In this document: positions 1 through 58,719 of the stretch, piece after piece | Position numbering within the stretch: position 1 is the stretch's first letter | Layout: each line of letters starts with the position of its first letter | DNA from: a virus | Direction: 5' to 3' (one strand) | IMG/VR virus record: IMGVR_UViG_3300023179_007765 | Coordinates: 1 to 59,062 of that record | DNA: 59,062 bases | The notes under the pieces: generated by a model | Databases searched by the model: none | What the model was told of the DNA's origin: nothing | What the model saw: the letters and a program-made list of their open reading frames with translations, nothing else | Program-made: the position numbers and the translations under genes

Positions 1-1
1 T

Positions 2-2419
2 GCTGCGCCGACCTACTCGCTGAGCGCTAACAAGAGCGTCGCAACCGAAGGCACCTCGACCACCTTCACCGCCACTCGCACCGGCGACACCACCAGTGCC
101 GTCACGCTGGTCTACAACATCGTCGGCGACGACAACAGCGGCACCGTTACCAAGGCTACCCCGGGCACCGACACCGACGTCGCTTCGGGCACCGTGACCA
201 TCGCTGCTGGCGCCACCACCGGCACCTTCACCGTCTCGGCCACCTCGGACACCTCGGTCGAAGGCCTCGAAGGCGTCAAAGTCTCGCTGTTCGCCGACAC
301 CACCGTCGTCGCTACGCGCTCGCTGCTGCTCAATGACGACCCGACCGTGGTTCCGGCCCAGACTTTCACGCTCACTACGGGTGCGGACAATTTCACGGGC
401 ACTTCCGGCAACGACACGATCAACGCATTCATTGGTGCGGCCAACAGCACCCTGACTGGCGCCGACATTATTGACGGCGGTGCGGGCACCGACACTCTGA
501 ACCTGAATACCGATAACACCGGCACTCTGTCTGCAGCATCTATCACCAACGTTGAGATCTTCAAGATTCGTGACGTTGGCGCGGCTGCGACCTACAACTT
601 CGCAACTGTTTCCGGTGAGAACTCTGTCATCAACAACATCAGCACTTCTGCGGTGACTCTGAGCGCGATGGCTGCTGGTACGGCGCTGACCATTAAAGGT
701 GACGGTACGACGACCAACGGTGCAACCACCTTCACTATGGCTGCCGCGACCGACGCCGTCAATCTGACCATCGATGGTGGCGTGACCGCTGGTGCCATCA
801 CTCGCAACGCCACTGGCGCTGCGACGGTTACAGTGAACTCTACCGGCGCTGCCAACACCATCGGTGTTCTGGATCTGGATACTGCTACTGCGGTCAAGGG
901 TCTGACCATTAATGCAGCGACTAACCTGACCGGCAGCTTGGCGGCTGACTATGCTGCCAGCTCTTCCCTGACCGTGACTGGTGCGGCCACTAAGGTTGAC
1001 CTGAGTGGCGCAGCCCTGTCGGCCAACATCACCAAGGTTGATGCTTCTGGCATGACCGCTGGCGGCGTGCTGGTCGCAGTTGATCAGACCGACACCACGG
1101 TGGATACCCAGTTTATTGGTGGCGCTGGCAACGATACGCTGGATATCGGTAAGGTTGTTTACAACAGCACAACCCTGACTGCGGCCGGTGGCAATGGCAC
1201 TGACACCCTCAAGATGTCTGACCAGGCTGCCCTGACCTCGACCACTGCCAAGTACATCTCCGGCTTCGAAACCCTGAGCCTGTACGACGACAACGACGGT
1301 GCGCTGGATACCTTCGACGCATCTCTTCTGTCTGGCATTACCGGCGTGTCGCTGGCTGCTGACTCCGCTGGCGACGGCTATGCTGTGACCAACCTGTCGG
1401 CCGCCCAGGCTGCCAACATCACCATCACTGGCAGCAACAACAACGTCGGCCCGACCCTGACCATCAAGGACGCCACCACGGTGGGCAACCTCGACACCCT
1501 GAGCGTTGCGATCAACGACGGTGCTACTGCGGTCAGCACCCTGACCTTGGCCAACCTGACCTCGGCTGGCGCGGAAACCATCAACTTCGCGCTGACGGAC
1601 AACCTGACGCTGTCCTCTGCCACGGGTCTGACGGCTCTCACCAAGATTGGCGTGACCGGTGCCGGCGCACTGAACCTGACCACTGGTGCTCTGGCGCTGA
1701 ACGTGAACTCCACCATCGACGCTTCGGCCTCTACCGGTACCGTGACGATCGACGCATCTGCTGGCACCACCAACGGTCTGGCCATCAAGGGCTCGTCCAC
1801 CAAGGCCAACACCATCACCGGTACCAACCAGGATGACGTCATCACCGGCGGCACTGGCGTGGATACGGTGAAGAACCAGGCCAACGCCGCGACCGACAGC
1901 GACACTGTGGACTTCGTGTCTGACAGCGCAGCTGACATCTTCGAAGTCACCACCCTGACCGGCAAGACCACCATCACCAACTTCGACGTGGCCACCACGA
2001 CCACCACCGAAGACTTGGTGAACGTGTCGAATGACAGCGCTGACGGCGCTGAAACGCAGATCACCGCAGCCGCCGCTCAAGCTTTGATCGGTAGCGACAA
2101 GACCATCGTGATCGAGCAGACCGTCGGTGCTGCAGCGTCTCTGACGACCGGTGGTACTGCCACCCTGGCCGCAGCTGACTTCACTGCTGCGACGTTGACC
2201 AACGTGGCTGCGTTCCTGAGCGAGCGCTTCACGGGCGACAACGACACGTTGGCTGATGAGACTGCCGTGATCATCATGAACAACGGCACGAACAGCTACA
2301 TGTATGCCTATGCTGACTCGACGACCGCCAACACGACGATTGACGCTAGTGAACTGACCCTGATCGGTGTGTTCAACGGCGCCATCCTGAACGCTGGCGA
2401 CGTCTACCAGACGGTCTAA
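2..2419 (+). CDS. S-layer / Calx-beta surface protein, 3' part (start outside window)
   Basis: The frame is open from base 2 to the TAA at 2417-2419 (805 residues), so the start lies upstream of the window. The first ~115 residues have the Calx-beta look (EGTSTTFTATRTGD, then SVEGLEGVKVSLF). From about base 361 comes a segment FTLTTGADNFTGTSGNDTI, followed by hundreds of residues of Thr/Ala/Gly/Asn-rich beta repeats, almost free of Cys, His and Trp. That composition is typical of proteobacterial S-layer and RTX-like surface proteins. GGAGNDTL and GGTGVDTV resemble RTX calcium-binding nonapeptides. It probably forms a secreted, calcium-stabilised cell-surface array. Neighbouring methyltransferase genes suggest surface modification. 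A paralogue with the same FTLTTGADNFTG-type segment lies at 56.2 kb. The family is recognised from composition and motifs; the exact role is inferred. Confidence 0.85.
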   Translation, partial: AAPTYSLSANKSVATEGTSTTFTATRTGDTTSAVTLVYNIVGDDNSGTVTKATPGTDTDVASGTVTIAAGATTGTFTVSATSDTSVEGLEGVKVSLFADTTVVATRSLLLNDDPTVVPAQTFTLTTGADNFTGTSGNDTINAFIGAANSTLTGADIIDGGAGTDTLNLNTDNTGTLSAASITNVEIFKIRDVGAAATYNFATVSGENSVINNISTSAVTLSAMAAGTALTIKGDGTTTNGATTFTMAAATDAVNLTIDGGVTAGAITRNATGAATVTVNSTGAANTIGVLDLDTATAVKGLTINAATNLTGSLAADYAASSSLTVTGAATKVDLSGAALSANITKVDASGMTAGGVLVAVDQTDTTVDTQFIGGAGNDTLDIGKVVYNSTTLTAAGGNGTDTLKMSDQAALTSTTAKYISGFETLSLYDDNDGALDTFDASLLSGITGVSLAADSAGDGYAVTNLSAAQAANITITGSNNNVGPTLTIKDATTVGNLDTLSVAINDGATAVSTLTLANLTSAGAETINFALTDNLTLSSATGLTALTKIGVTGAGALNLTTGALALNVNSTIDASASTGTVTIDASAGTTNGLAIKGSSTKANTITGTNQDDVITGGTGVDTVKNQANAATDSDTVDFVSDSAADIFEVTTLTGKTTITNFDVATTTTTEDLVNVSNDSADGAETQITAAAAQALIGSDKTIVIEQTVGAAASLTTGGTATLAAADFTAATLTNVAAFLSERFTGDNDTLADETAVIIMNNGTNSYMYAYADSTTANTTIDASELTLIGVFNGAILNAGDVYQTV

Positions 2420-2469
2420 GCGCTCTTCTTGGAGCTATCCTCCGGGCTTGGCCCGGGGGTGACCTTCGA

Positions 2470-51304: not shown

Positions 51305-51338
51305 CCGGTGCTGCCGCGCACGACAACCTCAAAAGACG

Positions 51339-51387
51339 ATCCCCCGATCTCACTGCCTTCACCGGTGGTGGGGTCGGGGGATTTTTG
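51339..51387 (+). terminator. Terminator closing the late operon
   Basis: ATCCCCCGA (51339-51347) pairs with TCGGGGGAT (51374-51382), followed by TTTTT. It lies 35 bases after the last lysis gene, so the following cargo cassette is a separate unit. Confidence 0.9.
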
Positions 51388-51429
51388 CGTTTGTGGTGTC
51401 CGAGACTTCGTAGCGTTGAACGGTTCTCA

Positions 51430-51458
51430 TTGAATTCGTGTCAACCATAGTGTAAACT
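51430..51458 (+). promoter_or_regulatory. Promoter of the cargo cassette
   Basis: TTGAAT (51430-51435) and TAAACT (51453-51458) are spaced 17 bp. It is the only clear sigma-70-like promoter between the late terminator and the cassette, giving expression in the lysogen. The region is much AT-richer than the tail genes. Confidence 0.7.
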
Positions 51459-51519
51459 GACAACCCCTGTGACAACCAGGGCGACAGCTTTCTAGGCAAC
51501 CAACCAAAGGAGAAAACGC

Positions 51520-52314
51520 GTGAAAATGACCAAAGCGCCTGTTTATTACGCACTGGCTCAAGCGCAGTTTAATCCTGTGGCTGCCATGGCAAAGTACGTC
51601 GACGAGATTCAAGACATCCTGCGCCGGGAGGGGTATACCCTTTTTGAGCCGCAAGAAATCACGCAACTGCAGTTCGTGGGGGCTGCTGGACAAGCGCCGG
51701 CTAATCCCGAGCTAATGAAAGTTACCAATTGGCTGATTTCAAAGGCTGATCGGACTGCTGGCTTTATTTTGGGCTCATCCTCTCTGGCCTACCACACAAC
51801 TCATTATGAAACTCGGAACGAGTTCTTGCCGGAGTTGGTGCAGGGATTGCAAGCTGTTCACAAGGTGGTTTTTCTAGATCACATTGCTCGACTGGGTTTG
51901 CGTTATCTCGATGCGGTGATTCCCGGCGAAGACGAGCAGGTTTCGCAGTATTTGGCTGATGGTTTGCAGGGCGTGACATTCGGCGCAAAGCAGCGTTACG
52001 CGATGAGCGAGTCTGTTTTTGAGACAGAAACAGGGCCACTGGTGAAATCAGGGACTTTGGTTGCGCGCGTTTATCGTGCGACATCTCCTCTTGGTTATCC
52101 GCCCGATCTGATTCCTCACGGGCTTCAGCCAATGCCTCGCTTCCAGAGGAGCGACACGATCTCCCACGCTGTGATTGATACCGATCACTATGTTGAAGGC
52201 AGAATGCCTATTGATTTTGAGCAGATCAAGGCACAGTTGGCGTCGCTGCACACGGGGATCAAGCAATCTTTCGAGGCAACTATTACGTCTTACGCTGCAG
52301 AAGTCTGGCGCTGA
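51520..52314 (+). CDS. TIGR04255-family protein (cargo cassette gene 1)
   Basis: 264 residues from GTG 51520, behind AAGGAG at 51507. The opening KAPVYYALAQAQFNPVAAMA, YVDEIQDILRREGYTLF, then LGLRYLDAVIPG and the closing FEATITSYAAEVWR are typical of TIGR04255, a sporadically distributed family of unknown activity. It starts a four-gene unit between the lysis genes and the integrase, a usual place for lysogenic-conversion or defence genes. Lower GC than the phage body points to later acquisition. Confidence 0.82.
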   Translation: MKMTKAPVYYALAQAQFNPVAAMAKYVDEIQDILRREGYTLFEPQEITQLQFVGAAGQAPANPELMKVTNWLISKADRTAGFILGSSSLAYHTTHYETRNEFLPELVQGLQAVHKVVFLDHIARLGLRYLDAVIPGEDEQVSQYLADGLQGVTFGAKQRYAMSESVFETETGPLVKSGTLVARVYRATSPLGYPPDLIPHGLQPMPRFQRSDTISHAVIDTDHYVEGRMPIDFEQIKAQLASLHTGIKQSFEATITSYAAEVWR

Positions 52315-52331
52315 TTAGAGGAGGGTTGGAT

Positions 52332-52955
52332 ATGTATGCAAACCACACTGTGGGTATAAATCCACGACTGCCATTGCGCAGCGTTGCACAGACCGCTTTT
52401 GTTGTGATGCTTGTAGGAACTGGCAGTGTTTATGCAATGGATCGCTTGGACACGTGGCGACCGCACCTTCAACACCGAGTTCCGTTTATTCCGGAAGCAG
52501 GTGTTCAGAGTAATGGTTCTGAACGGATTGATGTTCGTACTCCGCTTGAGCATCTTGAAAATATCCGCACGGTATTGAACCCTGCTGTTTCAGACTTGGC
52601 ATCCGTATTTGATGTTTCACGACAGGCTATTTACAAGTGGTTATCGAACGACTCGAAGCCAGAGGCTGAAAAGTCAGCTCGTGTGCAGGCGCTCAGTCAG
52701 ATCGCAGATGCTTTCAAAGAAGCCGGCGTAGCACGTGCTGGCAGCCTTCTCAAAATGAAGACCTTTGGTGACCGGTCTCTCATGGACATCGTAAGGGCCG
52801 GAGATGATTGGCATGAGGCCGTGGATGCCCTGATTGCCGAATCGCGTGCGATGGAGCGTGCCTATGAGCGGTCTGGACTGGCCAAATCCAAGGCAAAGCC
52901 AACTTCAGATTGGCAGACCTCTCAGTCAATTCCCGCGTCGCGCGAAGATGTGTAA
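52332..52955 (+). CDS. Membrane-anchored HTH (XRE-like) protein (cargo cassette gene 2)
   Basis: 207 residues from ATG 52332. A hydrophobic segment (RSVAQTAFVVMLVGTGSVYA, about residues 16-35) near the N-terminus may cross the membrane. Residues ~77-130 form a helix-turn-helix of XRE type (DLASVFDVSRQAIYKWLSN). A C-terminal helical part follows (DDWHEAVDALIAESRAMERA). A membrane-tethered DNA-binding protein is unusual; it may be a sensor or regulator of the cassette. It follows gene 1 after 17 bases. Confidence 0.72.
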   Translation: MYANHTVGINPRLPLRSVAQTAFVVMLVGTGSVYAMDRLDTWRPHLQHRVPFIPEAGVQSNGSERIDVRTPLEHLENIRTVLNPAVSDLASVFDVSRQAIYKWLSNDSKPEAEKSARVQALSQIADAFKEAGVARAGSLLKMKTFGDRSLMDIVRAGDDWHEAVDALIAESRAMERAYERSGLAKSKAKPTSDWQTSQSIPASREDV

Positions 52956-52964
52956 GGGAGAACT

Positions 52965-53816
52965 ATGCTCGGACGTGACACGCCTTGGAGGCAGGGCAGC
53001 GTAATTGCCCAGGCGGACGCCATCGCGGCCGGCTTATTCGATGAGACTTCCTCGAGCCTCAAACGGGCTCTTGTCATTACGCACGACTGTGATCTGACGA
53101 ATGACAGAGAGCTCGAAGTCGAGGTTATGGTCGGAAATGTGGTCGACAAGCTGAACAAACAGTTCGCTCGTGCCCGTAATGTTCGGCGCCTCCACTTGGC
53201 ATTCGATACGCCGTCTGGCAACCAGCAGTTTATTGACCTGCAGATAACCGCCAAGCAATCCATCTCCAAATCTCTGATCGCCGGCTCCAAGCCAGACGGT
53301 GGCTGGGTCCTGTCGGACGAGGAGAAACGATCCCTCAAGCAGTGGCTGGCAGCACGCTATGGTCGCCCAGCTTTTCCGAACGCGTTTGAGACGCATCTTC
53401 GCAAAAATGTCAGCAAGAAAGAGACGGTAGAGGATCGACTCGGGAAGGTCCTTGAAAAAGTGAGCGCCCATTTGGTCGGGGTGTTTTTTGACTTGGGTGA
53501 AAACCGCGCTGCCGAGCTCACGGATGGATCGCCTTACGACCTGAGGATTACTGTTGTCTATGACGCGAGTGAAGGTGGACAGCCTGCGAGGCTGGCTGCT
53601 GAAGAGGTGGTCTCTGAGATTCGGGATATTTTCCAATCGGCTTATGGTCCTCCAGAGGCAGCAACTGAGATCGCGCTGGAATCTTGCGAAGCAGTTGCAG
53701 ACCTTCGCTTCCCACTATCGGATCTGCGCAAAGTGGATCAATGGCGTGCCGAATACATCAGCCTGCGCCAGGACCCTCCAGAGTCGTTCCTGGCTGTTGG
53801 AGAGCTGCCAGCGTAA
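52965..53816 (+). CDS. Hypothetical protein with HDCD motif (cargo cassette gene 3)
   Basis: 283 residues. ALVITHDCDLTNDRELEVEV (residues 35-54) has a His40-Asp41-Cys42-Asp43 cluster that could bind a metal or be catalytic. Later parts are SLKQWLAARYGRPAFPNAFE, then LRITVVYDASEGGQPARLAA and a C-terminal helical region. Proteins with this HDCD segment occur in accessory regions; no function is known to me. Nine bases separate it from gene 2, and its stop overlaps gene 4's ATG. Confidence 0.7.
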   Translation: MLGRDTPWRQGSVIAQADAIAAGLFDETSSSLKRALVITHDCDLTNDRELEVEVMVGNVVDKLNKQFARARNVRRLHLAFDTPSGNQQFIDLQITAKQSISKSLIAGSKPDGGWVLSDEEKRSLKQWLAARYGRPAFPNAFETHLRKNVSKKETVEDRLGKVLEKVSAHLVGVFFDLGENRAAELTDGSPYDLRITVVYDASEGGQPARLAAEEVVSEIRDIFQSAYGPPEAATEIALESCEAVADLRFPLSDLRKVDQWRAEYISLRQDPPESFLAVGELPA

Positions 53817-54316
53817 TGGCATCAGGGGTAACTGAAGTTCTGGGCATCACCTGCGCGGGGCACTTTTGGCAAGAAGTGGTGCTTCCGAACGCGGTGCATT
53901 ACCGCCAGCATCCTACGGCCAGGGAGGCGTTCAACTTGGCTGCGTCGTTATGGCACTTGATCGACTGGGTCTTCGAGGACCCGCGTCTGAACTCGCAGCA
54001 CCAAGAAAAGAAAGCTCTACAGACCAACCTCCGACAGCAGTGCCCGGCACTGGGTGTGATGCACGACATCACCACGCTGTACAAGCACGCTCGAATGACC
54101 AGGCCGCAAGGGAATGTGATGGCTACGGATGTGGAGATGCTGGGGGCAACGTTCTACTTCGGTCCAGGTGGTCCTGTTTCCGAACATCCAGGTGAGTACG
54201 TCGTGACCTTGGAGGGAGGGGAGCAGCGCCCATTGAACGAATTGTTCGATGAGGCGCTGAAATTTTGGGACGGCTACTTCCGCGCTGATGCGGCGGGTCA
54301 GCAGGTCACGCTATAG
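53816..54316 (+). CDS. Hypothetical helical protein (cargo cassette gene 4)
   Basis: 166 residues from ATG 53816, overlapping the stop of gene 3 by one base. Helical features: REAFNLAASLWHLIDWVFED, then ALGVMHDITTLYKHARMTRP. The D-x(4)-YKHAR pattern with the earlier helices recalls HEPN-like all-helical proteins, but the canonical R-x(4-6)-H is not certain. Its end overlaps the end of the opposite-strand integrase gene by 11 bases. Confidence 0.66.
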   Translation: MASGVTEVLGITCAGHFWQEVVLPNAVHYRQHPTAREAFNLAASLWHLIDWVFEDPRLNSQHQEKKALQTNLRQQCPALGVMHDITTLYKHARMTRPQGNVMATDVEMLGATFYFGPGGPVSEHPGEYVVTLEGGEQRPLNELFDEALKFWDGYFRADAAGQQVTL

Positions 54317-55517
54317 CCGCCACCTGAGGTGTGCCAGTGTTGGCTGCGACTGGCCGCCGCCCCACGACATTCCCCACCACATTGACCGCCTCCAGCATCG
54401 CCTGCGGCGACAGGTGCGCGTAGCGCATCGTCACCTTCGGATCGTGATGACCCAGGAGCTTTTGCACCTCGTACAGCGACCGCCCAGCGTTGACCAGGAA
54501 ACTGGCGTAGCTGTGGCGCAGGTCGTGCAGCCGCACTTCCTCCAGCCCGACTTTCTTGCGGATCGAGTCCCAGGCGTAGAAGATCGACACCGGAGGCTTC
54601 TTGGTCTTGGGGTTAAAGAACACCCAAGGGATGTCGTCCTGCCGGGGCAGCGACAGCAGCAACTCAATGGCCGCATCCGAGAGCGGGATGTGGCGCGGCT
54701 TCTTCGACTTCGACCGTGCCGCCGGCACCGTCAGCATCCGGCGATTGAAATCGATCTCGTCCCACCGGGCATCCAGGATCTCCCGCTTGCGGGCACCGGT
54801 GTAGAGCAGCAGCCGGATCACCTGGCCCACCTGCACATTGCGGTTGGTGTCGAGTTCATCAAACAGCCGCTGCACCTCGTCGGTCGTCAGGTAACGCTCC
54901 CGGGCGCCGTGGTCCTCAAAAGGCTCTACCCCATCGCAGGGGTTGCTTTTGGGCGGCAGGATGTCCCAGCGGATCGCGCAGTTGTAGATGAACTTCATCA
55001 GCACGATCATCCGGTTGCAGGTCCCGGCCGCGTAGCCCTTCTCGAACACCGCGTGGTGGAAGGCCACCACATCGGAGCGGGTGATGCGGTTCATCCGAAA
55101 CTCGGCAAACACCGGCAGGAGGTGGTTGCGCAGCATCGTCTCGTCTGTCTCCCAGCTGCGCTTGCGGGTCTTGGCGTAGGGCAGATAGCGCTCGGCCACG
55201 AAATCCCCGAAGGTCGGTACATCCTTGAAGCGATGACTCTCCACCTTGGGGTCGCCACCCTCGGTGACCATCTGCTTCATCTTGTGCGCTTTGGCCCGGG
55301 CGTCCGACACCGAAATCTCGTCAGAGCGGCCAATCCGATTCAGCCGCACCTTGCCGGCGGCGTCGCGGTAGCGGAAGTAAAAGGTGGCGCCGCCGCTGGC
55401 CCGATGCTCCAGCAGGAAGCCCTTGATCTCCGTATCGAAGTAACTCACGGCCCCGGAGGCAGGCTCGCGACCTGGCAATGTGGCCAGGAATTCGGTCGTC
55501 AACGCTTGTGCTGGCAT
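54306..55517 (-). CDS. Tyrosine recombinase / phage integrase
   Basis: 403 residues. An N-terminal arm-binding part (SYFDTEIKGFLLEHRASGGA), a SAM-like core-binding domain (FGDFVAERYLPYAKTRKRSW) and the catalytic domain: Arg243 (TGARKREIL), a Lys near 270-273 (RSKSKKPRHIPL), His331 and Arg334 (HDLRHSYASF), His357 (LLGHHDP) and Tyr366 (MRYAHLS). It integrates and excises the prophage and is transcribed towards the phage interior from a divergent region shared with the XRE gene. Confidence 0.95.
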   Translation of the reverse strand: MPAQALTTEFLATLPGREPASGAVSYFDTEIKGFLLEHRASGGATFYFRYRDAAGKVRLNRIGRSDEISVSDARAKAHKMKQMVTEGGDPKVESHRFKDVPTFGDFVAERYLPYAKTRKRSWETDETMLRNHLLPVFAEFRMNRITRSDVVAFHHAVFEKGYAAGTCNRMIVLMKFIYNCAIRWDILPPKSNPCDGVEPFEDHGARERYLTTDEVQRLFDELDTNRNVQVGQVIRLLLYTGARKREILDARWDEIDFNRRMLTVPAARSKSKKPRHIPLSDAAIELLLSLPRQDDIPWVFFNPKTKKPPVSIFYAWDSIRKKVGLEEVRLHDLRHSYASFLVNAGRSLYEVQKLLGHHDPKVTMRYAHLSPQAMLEAVNVVGNVVGRRPVAANTGTPQVAAIA

Positions 55518-55627
55518 CGTCGTGCTCCTCTATCTATTGAGGGTCATGCTACGATACAATGCGCCGGAAAGGACATAAAAAGCGTCTAATAGACCGGAAT
55601 ATTTACCTACCCAAAAAGGAGTCGACC

Positions 55628-55879
55628 ATGATCGACGGAAGACAGATCCGCGCCGCACGCGCGATGCTGGGCTGGAGCCGGGACGACCTGCTCAAGGCCT
55701 CGGGCATCTCGATGTCAGCGCTGCTGCGCATGGAAGGGGCACTGGCCGACAGCCGGGGCTCCACACTCAACAAGGTGGCCAAGGCCCTGACCCTGGCCGG
55801 CATCGAATTCGTCACTCGGGATGACGGGGCGATTGGCGTGATCCTCAAGGCACAAAATCCGCCCGATGCGCCACAATGA
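55628..55879 (+). CDS. XRE-family helix-turn-helix regulator
   Basis: 83 residues from ATG 55628, behind AAAAAGGAG; a start at 55559 is rejected. QIRAARAMLGWSRDDLLKAS then GISMSALLRMEGALADSRGS is a canonical XRE HTH, and AKALTLAGIEFVTRDDGAIG is the short C-terminal part often seen in small DNA-binding prophage regulators. Divergent to the integrase, it probably controls integrase expression or excision. Confidence 0.88.
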   Translation: MIDGRQIRAARAMLGWSRDDLLKASGISMSALLRMEGALADSRGSTLNKVAKALTLAGIEFVTRDDGAIGVILKAQNPPDAPQ

Positions 55880-56163: not shown

Positions 56164-58719
56164 CTGGCTATTACGCTCACTACTGGTGCGGACAACTTCA
56201 CCGGCAGCACAGGCAACGACACCTTTTTCGCCTCTTTGGTGTTTGCTGCTGATGAAACAGTTACAACAGCTTCACAGTTGTCAGTCGCTGATATTTTGGC
56301 CGGCGGAGCAGGTACTGACACACTCAACATCGTAATTTCTGGCTTACAAGATGCCGCCGTTACTGTTCCTGTGGCTTCTACTTCAGCTATGGAGACAATT
56401 AACATCCGCAACACTGTCGCTCAGGAAGCAACCTATGCTGCTACGAACGGCTTAACAACTGCTGCCTCAGATCGTTCTACTGGTGCGGTAGTTTTTTCTG
56501 GTCTTGCAGCTGGCGCAGTCGGCAGCGTCATCGGTGATGGTGTTGTTACAAACGGCGCATCAACCTTTGGATACGCTGCTACTGTTACATCCGGTACGGT
56601 TAATTTCTCAGGTGGAACCTTAGGAACACCTGTCGTTACTACTTCAGGAACACTCCTCGCTACCCAAACCGTTAACTCAACTGGAGCTGCAAACGTAACC
56701 GGCGCAATGACACTGGGTGCAGCTGTTACAACTTTGAACGTCAATGCTACAACAGCCTTGACAACAGGTGCTGTGACCAACACAGGCGGTGCAGCTTTGA
56801 CCAGAATCAACGTTACTGGTTCGGGCGCAGTTAGCTTGTCTGCTACCCCATTGGAAGCAACTGTTACAACCATTGATGCATCAGCTGCTACTGGTGCTTT
56901 GACTGTTGCATTGGGTTCTGCTGTTACACAAACAGTTACTGGCGGTACAGGTAACGACGTGATCACAACTGGTGCTGTTCTGACAACTGGTTCAGTTAAC
57001 GCTGGTGCAGGCACCGACGTTCTGGACGTCGGTACTAACGTTGCACACGTCAATACTTCAACCTTGGCTGCAAAGTACACAAACTTTGAAACAGTACGTA
57101 TTGGTGCGGCTGCTTTGGATATGTCCTTGATTGGCGGTATCAATGCAGTTCAATTGACAGGCGCTGCAACATTGACCAACATGACAGCTACCCAAGCTGC
57201 TGCAGTTACAGCTCGTGCAAACATTGGTAACGCAAGTCTGGCATTGGCAACTGCAACTGGCACATCGGACGTCTTGACCATTACAAACGGTTTGGGAACT
57301 ACGACGGCAGCTGCCACCACAATCGGCACACTGGTTGCTACAGGTTTTGAAACAATTAACCTCGCAGCAAACCCTGGCCCAACAGCCACATCAGGTGCAA
57401 ACCGTACTACAACGGTTACAGCGATCACTGATACATCATTGACCGCTGTCAATTTGACTGGTACTGCATTCACTTTTGGTGATATCGCTTCTACAAAGGC
57501 AGTTGCTTGGAATGCTTCAGCATTGACAGGTAACGGTGCTTCTACTCCAGTCGGTTTGACCTTGACCACAACTGGTGCAGCATTCGCCGGCTCTACTGTT
57601 ACTGGTTCCGCTCTGCGCGATTCGGTGATCATGGACTCTTCGACAGGTGTTACCTTTAACTTGGGTGCAGGCAACGACATCTTCTCGACAACATCAACAC
57701 TGCTGTTGCCATCAGGTGCTGCTACCGATAACACCATCAATGCTGGTGAAGGTGCTACTGACCGATTGGTGTTCACAGGTGCAGCAACTCTGACAGACAC
57801 ATCCTTCATCAAAACTTCCGGTTTCGAAGCTTTGGAGCTGGCAGGTGCTGGTGTTGCTAACAGTGTGACTGGTTTGGCCGCTGGTTTCTTGACAGGTTTC
57901 GCAGGTGGCGTAACTGTTACTGATACTGCTGCACAGACAGGTGCAAATGCATACACTTGGTCTTCTGGTTTGTATGCACAGCCAGTGACATTGACTCATG
58001 AGACTACATATGCCGGTACAGCTGCTGCTGGTAACCAAACCATTACAACTGGCGCAGGTAACGATACGATTACTGTGATTGCTTCGTCATGGGTTGGTGT
58101 TGCTGCTGGTACAGGCGCTACGATTGCAGTCAGTACTGGTGCAGGTAACGATACGATTACTGTTACTACTGGAACGCAGCTTGCACAAACTACAACTGCT
58201 CCTGTTGTGATTACGGGCGGTTTGGGTGCTGATACGATCACATCGTCGGGCGTCAACATCACAACTGGTGCTGGCGTACTGACAACAACATATGTGATTG
58301 CTGCTGGTGACTCTACGACAACTGCTTACGACTCAATCACTGGTTTTGACCTTGGAACTGCCGCACTTTTGCCTTCAACTCTGGACTTGGTAGGTACTGG
58401 TGCTGTTACCACTTATGCAGCAACTGCACCAACTGGCTACACAGCAGCTCAATTGACAGTTGCAGTTACTGCAACTTCTGGTTTGGTAGTTTTTGCGGGT
58501 ACAAGCGCCTCTGCATTGACTTTGGCAGAAAAAATTGCAGCAGTTCAATCAGTTGTTACAACCAACACCACTGACTTGGCAGTATTCACTCATGGTGCAA
58601 ACTCCTATGTGTTCCAAAACAACACAGCTGGAGACATCGTAGTTGAATTGGTTGGTGTTGCCGCAACAAACATCATTGTTGCCAACGCTAACGTTGCAGG
58701 TAGTGTCTTGGTGCTCTGA
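56164..58719 (+). CDS. S-layer-type surface protein, apparently without ATG start and promoter
   Basis: 851 codons from the stop at 56161-56163 to TGA 58717-58719. The frame begins CTG-GCT-ATT-ACG, i.e. (L)AITLTTGADNFTGSTGNDTF. The homologous family often starts MAIT, so the natural start was probably ATG at 56164; the next in-frame ATG (56236) is 24 codons in. Thr/Ala/Gly-rich beta repeats and RTX-like GGTGNDVI, GAGNDTITV and GGLGADTIT motifs make it an S-layer or RTX-type secreted protein. Codon use is strikingly AT-richer (ACA, GCA, TTG) than its paralogue at 2-2419. It may be silenced by the phage. Confidence 0.72.
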   Translation: MAITLTTGADNFTGSTGNDTFFASLVFAADETVTTASQLSVADILAGGAGTDTLNIVISGLQDAAVTVPVASTSAMETINIRNTVAQEATYAATNGLTTAASDRSTGAVVFSGLAAGAVGSVIGDGVVTNGASTFGYAATVTSGTVNFSGGTLGTPVVTTSGTLLATQTVNSTGAANVTGAMTLGAAVTTLNVNATTALTTGAVTNTGGAALTRINVTGSGAVSLSATPLEATVTTIDASAATGALTVALGSAVTQTVTGGTGNDVITTGAVLTTGSVNAGAGTDVLDVGTNVAHVNTSTLAAKYTNFETVRIGAAALDMSLIGGINAVQLTGAATLTNMTATQAAAVTARANIGNASLALATATGTSDVLTITNGLGTTTAAATTIGTLVATGFETINLAANPGPTATSGANRTTTVTAITDTSLTAVNLTGTAFTFGDIASTKAVAWNASALTGNGASTPVGLTLTTTGAAFAGSTVTGSALRDSVIMDSSTGVTFNLGAGNDIFSTTSTLLLPSGAATDNTINAGEGATDRLVFTGAATLTDTSFIKTSGFEALELAGAGVANSVTGLAAGFLTGFAGGVTVTDTAAQTGANAYTWSSGLYAQPVTLTHETTYAGTAAAGNQTITTGAGNDTITVIASSWVGVAAGTGATIAVSTGAGNDTITVTTGTQLAQTTTAPVVITGGLGADTITSSGVNITTGAGVLTTTYVIAAGDSTTTAYDSITGFDLGTAALLPSTLDLVGTGAVTTYAATAPTGYTAAQLTVAVTATSGLVVFAGTSASALTLAEKIAAVQSVVTTNTTDLAVFTHGANSYVFQNNTAGDIVVELVGVAATNIIVANANVAGSVLVL

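What the first reader, a model, noticed from the sequence alone, without database searches (positions are those of the whole stretch)
51430..54316. Four-gene cargo cassette beside the integrase: candidate undescribed phage-defence or lysogenic-conversion system
Between the late terminator and the integrase lies a self-contained unit: own promoter, TIGR04255 protein, membrane-anchored XRE-type protein, HDCD-motif protein, and a helical (possibly HEPN-like) protein. Spacing is 17, 9 and -1 bases, so the order is operonic. Codon use is clearly AT-richer than the phage structural genes, a sign of later acquisition. The position next to int is a known cargo hotspot in temperate phages (established). 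A joint function for these four families is inference; I know no named system with this composition.
Basis: partly seen in the sequence, partly recalled or inferred. Interest (0 to 1): 0.78.

Follow-up and report, generated by a model that had tools for sequence, protein, structure and literature searches.

The report
Swappable-toxin operon in phage defence slot
A phage carries, in a slot where its close relatives keep known anti-phage genes, a three-gene operon that belongs to a widespread, unnamed family in which one constant protein (TIGR04255) is paired with exchangeable toxin-like partners, so it is probably an undescribed kind of bacterial self-defence or addiction module.

Summary
g1 (TIGR04255), g2 (XRE-type helix-turn-helix) and g3 (an "HDCD" protein) occur together in this order in nearly every g3 locus found, on plasmids, prophages and chromosomes of several phyla. 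g4 is an int-adjacent accessory, seen only in this phage group and also behind another system; its "HEPN-like" label found no support. The cargo lies between sharp backbone breaks (51398/54349). In sister phages the same slot holds AbiE, RloAB/AbiL, a PD-T4-5-like gene, an RmrA-like pair, or KAP+RES+AbiEii.

The larger finding: in 88 independently drawn TIGR04255 loci of three phyla, TIGR04255 usually opens a tight three-gene operon (72%, against 11% for control genes). The third gene varies: HxCD proteins (about 32), Zeta toxin (3, in the same clade as ours and keeping g2), HEPN-like, canonical PemK once, papain-like, unknown. g3's N-terminal domain is MazF/PemK-like by fold only; sequence profiles do not match. 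Most likely g1+g2 restrain a toxin-like effector (g3), for abortive infection or addiction. No such system is in PADLOC 2.0, and no paper in the held library contains "TIGR04255". Function is untested.

The parts
51338..51383 (+). late-operon intrinsic terminator, left border of the cargo slot
   Evidence: 20-pair stem followed by T run; backbone match of most sister phages ends at 51391-51398
51399..54348 (.). exchanged cargo segment (includes the last codons of int)
   Evidence: backbone homology stops at about 51391-51398 and resumes at 54349 in most sister phages that carry other cargo
51430..51458 (+). candidate promoter TTGAAT-17-TAAACT (inference)
   Evidence: read by eye, 8 of 12 consensus bases, below the scan threshold; conserved in WIN and L010-L012
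51520..52314 (+). g1: TIGR04255 protein (GTG 51520 or ATG 51526; AAGGAG at 51507-51512 fits GTG better)
   Evidence: NCBIfam TIGR04255 2.2e-39, full length; AlphaFold2 pLDDT 93.2
52332..52955 (+). g2: XRE-type helix-turn-helix protein; HTH about residues 86-118; hydrophobic residues 17-33 with GTG motif at 29-31
   Evidence: HTH_3 in 35 of 67 relatives; alignment A6; hydrophobicity
52965..53816 (+). g3: HDCD (HxCD) protein, proposed toxin-like effector; HDCD at 53082-53093 (residues 40-43)
   Evidence: invariant W8, Q10, G11, C42, D43, R74, W127, L128, Y132, R134 in 64 relatives; MazF/PemK-like fold by Foldseek
53816..54316 (+). g4: int-side accessory gene of unknown function, not part of the conserved operon
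   Evidence: found only in WIN, L010-L012 and, behind a different gene, in L102 and L109
54306..55517 (-). tyrosine integrase of the phage, right border of the cargo slot
   Evidence: related loci with 79-99% identical integrase

Best explanation
g1-g2-g3 is one member of a modular three-gene family. The constant TIGR04255 protein (g1) and a variable middle protein (g2, here an XRE-type DNA-binding protein that probably also represses its own operon) hold a toxin-like third protein (g3) inactive. A second infection, or loss of the operon, disturbs the g1-g2 complex and frees g3, which stops growth, perhaps by acting on RNA through its MazF-like domain. The prophage thereby protects its host, or its own maintenance. 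Shown: the operon, its conservation and order, the slot, exchange of the third gene (including for a Zeta toxin), and one g1-g2 fusion. Inferred: complex, inhibition, trigger and toxicity. The RNA target is a guess from fold alone.
For: Order g1-g2-g3 in 97 of 101 loci found through g3; two of the four exceptions are cut by a contig end. Plasmids, prophages and chromosomes from Pseudomonadota to Deinococcota and Cyanobacteriota. In-frame g1-g2 fusion in Rugamonas L042. Drawn through g1 instead: 63 of 88 TIGR04255 loci have two further genes each within 30 bases, against 15 of 134 control genes treated alike (Fisher p about 1e-20). The third gene is a Zeta toxin in three loci (Pfam 1.9e-10; positions), nested in the clade of our system and keeping g1 and the HTH gene; a canonical PemK in one; HEPN-like by eye in four. 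The g1 tree needs 29 changes of partner type (shuffled mean 51.9, 0 of 200 as low): partners are clade-linked but repeatedly exchanged. g3 fold: the first 17 PDB hits are MazF and three of the top viral hits are PemK-like. The slot holds AbiEii, AbiL, RmrA-like and PD-T4-5-like genes in sister phages.
Against: g3 shows no sequence-profile match to PemK (hhalign probability 0.1%; the PemK profile had only six rows) and lacks its conserved Arg-Pro. Best Foldseek E is only 2e-3, with TM 0.27 over the whole of g3. Several third-gene families are unknown, so not every third gene is shown to be a toxin. The chromosomal neighbourhood test is only suggestive: more PADLOC families near the cassette than in control stretches (224 against 61), but families, not proteins, are counted, and one control held GajA. 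No experiment.
Confidence: 0.55

Rival explanations
1. A pure addiction module: the same toxin/antitoxin mechanism, selected only for keeping the prophage or plasmid, without anti-phage action.
For: Frequent on plasmids and prophages, some copies beside integrases or recombinases; toxin-like third genes in some subtypes.
Against: The slot holds abortive-infection families in sister phages; the operon also sits as a single copy in large chromosomal contigs.
Confidence: 0.2
2. The roles are different: g1 or g3 is a sensor or enzyme of a non-toxic defence (for example one that modifies or blocks phage RNA or protein directly), and g2 is only a regulator.
For: g1 fold and function are unknown; g3 lacks the Arg-Pro of PemK and shows no profile link to it, while it has its own invariant C42, D43 and R74; several third genes are of unknown kind.
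Against: The same position holds Zeta toxin in a closely related clade.
Confidence: 0.17
3. Lysogenic conversion or phage regulation unrelated to defence: a transcription regulator with two helper proteins.
For: g2 has a helix-turn-helix; the operon is a prophage cargo.
Against: The operon occurs unchanged on plasmids and chromosomes of several phyla and its alternatives in the slot are defence genes; the third gene is exchanged for toxins.
Confidence: 0.08

Closest known systems
TAC tripartite toxin-antitoxin-chaperone modules, e.g. CmdTAC (PMC11618068)
   Same: three genes; a control component works with an antitoxin to hold a toxin; in CmdTAC a capsid protein captures the chaperone and the toxin is freed
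   Different: the constant protein is TIGR04255; SecB was not among the 50 best PDB hits of its model; no SecB-like gene was found in the operon
PanAT modules: Panacea (DUF4065) antitoxins with many toxins (PMC8832971)
   Same: one conserved control protein paired with unrelated toxins that are exchanged between lineages, also in Burkholderia prophages
   Different: usually two genes, and no DUF4065 domain here
MazEF / PemIK type II toxin-antitoxin
   Same: g3 N-terminal domain has a MazF/PemK-like predicted fold
   Different: no sequence-profile link, no Arg-Pro, own invariant residues, an extra C-terminal half and a third protein
epsilon-zeta toxin-antitoxin
   Same: three TIGR04255 operons of the same clade carry a Zeta_toxin kinase as third gene
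   Different: controlled here by TIGR04255 plus an HTH protein; g3 itself is no kinase
AbiE, RloAB/AbiL, PD-T4-5 and RmrA-like cargo of sister phages
   Same: occupy the same slot between terminator and int
   Different: unrelated proteins

Membership tests
TIGR04255 family (g1) | NCBIfam model score above the curated cut-off of 30 bits over its full length | tested here: met
   135.8 bits, residues 1-261, profile 2-251 of 252
MazF/PemK toxins (g3) | Pfam PemK_toxin match or profile similarity | tested here: not met
   no Pfam match in any of 64 relatives among the 25 families shown; hhalign probability 0.1%
MazF/PemK toxins (g3) | SH3-like barrel fold | tested here: inconclusive
   first 17 PDB hits are MazF, probability up to 1.00, but best E 2.3e-3 and TM about 0.56 on the target
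MazF/PemK toxins (g3) | sequence-specific RNA cleavage | not testable with these tools
   needs an experiment
TAC modules | SecB-like chaperone | tested here: not met
   no SecB-like match in g1-g4 by Pfam; none in the 50 best PDB hits of the g1 model
PanAT modules | Panacea domain (DUF4065) | tested here: not met
   no such match in g1-g4
Toxin-antitoxin systems in general | third protein toxic alone, neutralised by partners | not testable with these tools
   Zeta toxin and PemK in the same position of related operons are indirect support
Known anti-phage systems in PADLOC-DB 2.0.0 | model match of g1, g3 or g4 | tested here: not met
   none; only generic HTH matches for g2. Systems named after 2023 are not covered
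Anti-phage defence system | protects cells against phage | not testable with these tools
   location evidence only
   no Pfam, NCBIfam or PADLOC match and one weak PHROG match; no match to the HEPN-like third genes. No fold prediction was made for g4

The most novel reading that the evidence does not exclude
TIGR04255 is the invariant control protein of a widespread, undescribed immune system built as constant core + variable adaptor + exchangeable effector, with at least six effector families (HxCD/MazF-fold, Zeta kinase, HEPN-like, papain-like and unknown ones). TIGR04255 was found in about 7-16% of sampled genomes of three phyla. The effectors have been exchanged many times, as in CBASS or PanAT, but with a sensor/inhibitor of unknown function and unknown trigger.
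Probability: 0.45. Interest if true: 0.85.

Novelty: new variant of a known kind. Interest (0 to 1): 0.68.

Why it matters
TIGR04255 proteins have been a label without a function. The survey gives them a testable role: the shared part of a modular operon whose third gene is sometimes a recognisable toxin. That opens a large family of unannotated operons to one common experiment and offers new candidate effector families (HxCD and others). It also shows a phage group exchanging this operon with abortive-infection systems in one defined slot between its late terminator and its integrase.

Tried and rejected
Four-gene system: rejected; g4 follows g3 only in the window and L010-L012. Single-sequence genome scan with g3: found nothing; repeated with an alignment. 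Relatives of the window's own genome: not available for a virus record. E. coli genomes: no match to the Klebsiella version in DNA mode. Structures related by sequence to g3 and g1 in the PDB: none meaningful. Zeta-like, HEPN-like and papain-like third genes against the PDB by sequence: nothing useful. Profile link of g3 to PemK: not found. g1 fold: AdoMetDC, TBP, EspG and PII-like hits with TM about 0.3, too weak to name a function. g4 in 300 genomes of the order of Janthinobacterium: none, but without a positive control. L297, where a canonical PemK follows TIGR04255, may be an independent toxin-antitoxin pair next door and was given little weight. The first tree was a quick one; the careful one gave nearly the same counts, though its bootstrap had not fully settled.

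Full report
What is there. The window is a virus record. g1 is a full-length TIGR04255 protein (2.2e-39). g2 has an XRE-type HTH. g3 and g4 match no family in Pfam, NCBIfam, PADLOC or PHROGs at a meaningful level. GC3 of g1-g3 is 0.47-0.60, against 0.75 +/- 0.11 for long ORFs of the phage part and 0.84 for int. This supports later acquisition.

A cargo slot with sharp borders. Sister phages with nearly the same integrase and holin-like gene mostly keep the backbone up to 51391-51398 and resume it at 54349, inside the last codons of int. Between these borders they carry other genes. Examples: AbiEi/AbiEii (L160), RloAB, scored as AbiLi/AbiLii (L147, L152), KAP NTPase + RES + AbiEii (L158), a PD-T4-5-like gene (L157), an RmrA-like protein plus a small second gene (L166), and an unknown pair (L145). 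g1-g3 is one of the alternatives, in this phage and three relatives (L010-L012).

Three genes, not four. A scan with the g3 profile found 55 genome loci and 36 viral loci, besides plasmid and phage records. In 97 of 101 loci g1 is detected upstream of g3, with g2 between; two of the four exceptions are cut at a contig end. Many of these loci are near-copies; 64 g3 proteins remain distinct at 92% identity. The loci span Pseudomonadota, Deinococcota, Cyanobacteriota, Myxococcota and others. They include plasmids of Robbsia, Pseudomonas, Klebsiella, Meiothermus and Gloeocapsa. The scan selected on g3 only, so co-occurrence of g1 and g2 was free to fail. In Rugamonas L042, g1 and g2 form one reading frame that lacks the hydrophobic part of g2; this fusion suggests that the two act together. 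g4 follows g3 only in the window and L010-L012. In L102 and L109 a g4 homologue follows the PD-T4-5-like gene instead, and the DNA shared with L144 begins at 53840. g4 is thus an accessory of the int side of the slot.

The family is modular. To ask the question from the other side, TIGR04255 was searched in genomes drawn without regard to g3. It was found in 28 of 300 of the order of Janthinobacterium, 30 of 399 of its phylum, 30 of 189 of the phylum of Sorangium and 21 of 194 of the phylum of Phormidesmis, and in none of 14 well-known control genomes. For 88 of these loci the two genes downstream of TIGR04255 were read. The 88 leave out most first-survey loci that already showed our g2 and g3, so they under-represent our subtype. 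In 63 of 88 both gaps are within 30 bases. The same procedure on 134 control genes gave 15 (Fisher p about 1e-20). The third gene falls into several unrelated clusters: HxCD proteins with a (S/T)xxCD motif (about 32 loci); Zeta toxin (3 loci; PF06414 1.9e-10; positions confirmed); HEPN-like by eye (4); a GLTCATFV protein resembling papain/NlpC by eye (6); unknown groups (17 and about 8); and once a canonical PemK (1.1e-18), which may be an independent pair. Middle genes vary too, and 22 of 88 have a strongly hydrophobic 17-mer.

Exchange of the third gene. On a tree of 100 TIGR04255 proteins, partner type is clustered but needs 29 changes (shuffled mean 51.9, 0 of 200 as low). Well-supported branches force at least 8 changes for HxCD alone. 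The HxCD label itself joins long and short forms by single linkage, so it may hold more than one family. The Zeta-type loci form one clade (100/100). In the quick tree this clade lies inside the 25-row group that holds our system, and these loci keep a g2-like HTH gene. In this lineage, then, g1 and g2 stayed while the third gene was exchanged between g3 and a recognisable toxin. This is the best evidence that g3 occupies an effector position.

g3 and g1 structure. AlphaFold2 gave good models (g3 pLDDT 87.8; g1 pLDDT 93.2). For g3 the first 17 PDB hits are MazF toxins (best E 2.3e-3, probability 1.00, TM 0.56 on the target), and three of the top viral hits are PemK-like proteins. Sequence profiles do not agree (hhalign probability 0.1%), and the Arg-Pro conserved in PemK is not conserved in g3. 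W8, Q10, G11, C42, D43, R74, W127, L128, Y132 and R134 are invariant instead. g3 is therefore MazF-like in predicted fold only; it is not filed as a MazF toxin. g1 resembles pseudo-symmetric alpha/beta sandwiches (AdoMetDC, TBP) weakly. No function follows from that.

Mechanism. The reading that joins these facts is a toxin-type effector (g3) kept inactive by g1 and g2 and released on a trigger. It would work like the TAC systems, in which a capsid protein captures the chaperone and the antitoxin is degraded (CmdTAC, PMC11618068), or like PanA modules, in which one antitoxin domain serves many toxins (PMC8832971). It is a member of neither: no SecB-like chaperone and no DUF4065 was found. The hydrophobic GTG region of g2 could be a membrane anchor or a segment held by g1; the data do not decide. 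Whether the benefit is anti-phage defence or addiction cannot be settled here. The slot argues for defence. The chromosomal neighbourhoods (restriction systems, recombinases; 224 PADLOC families against 61 in control stretches) are suggestive only.

Novelty. PADLOC-DB 2.0.0 has no matching model. No paper of the 5.39 million searched contains 'TIGR04255' or its InterPro or CHP names (the InterPro and CHP names are from memory). The library lacks most subscription papers and bioRxiv, and systems named after 2023 are not in that PADLOC copy, so prior description under another name remains possible.

Noticed in passing
window 1-2434 and 56164-58719: Large RTX/S-layer-like open frames stand at both ends of the window and are related to each other (37% over 523 aa). 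Other, different genes of this kind follow int in L010 and L011. The prophage may sit between S-layer-like genes, or carry one. The right-hand gene is AT-richer (GC3 0.35).
   Followed up: partly
L145:8523-10059 (-) and L165 (same slot): A two-gene cassette (387 and 124 aa) whose larger protein has no Pfam match and only a marginal PADLOC match (PDC-M32A, 8.8e-4) occupies the defence slot of two sister phages: a further candidate defence pair.
   Followed up: no
window 54306-54348: The last codons of the integrase gene lie inside the exchanged segment, so each cargo appears to bring its own int 3' end.
   Followed up: no
L274, L276, L283, L292, L302, L340, L350: The second commonest TIGR04255 subtype pairs a middle protein, often with a WDGYG-type motif, with a 90-165 aa third protein (clusters c2/c3) of unknown family.
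   Followed up: partly
L158:7210-11019 (-): RES domain + KAP NTPase (PDC-S20) + AbiEii form a three-gene cassette in the same slot of a sister phage.
   Followed up: no
window 55559-55879: A small HTH-like ORF stands directly upstream of int on the opposite strand, a possible regulator of int or excision.
   Followed up: no
window 52416-52427 (g2 residues 29-32): A GTG(G)-type motif is kept in most g2 relatives, including some without a hydrophobic stretch; its role is unknown.
   Followed up: partly
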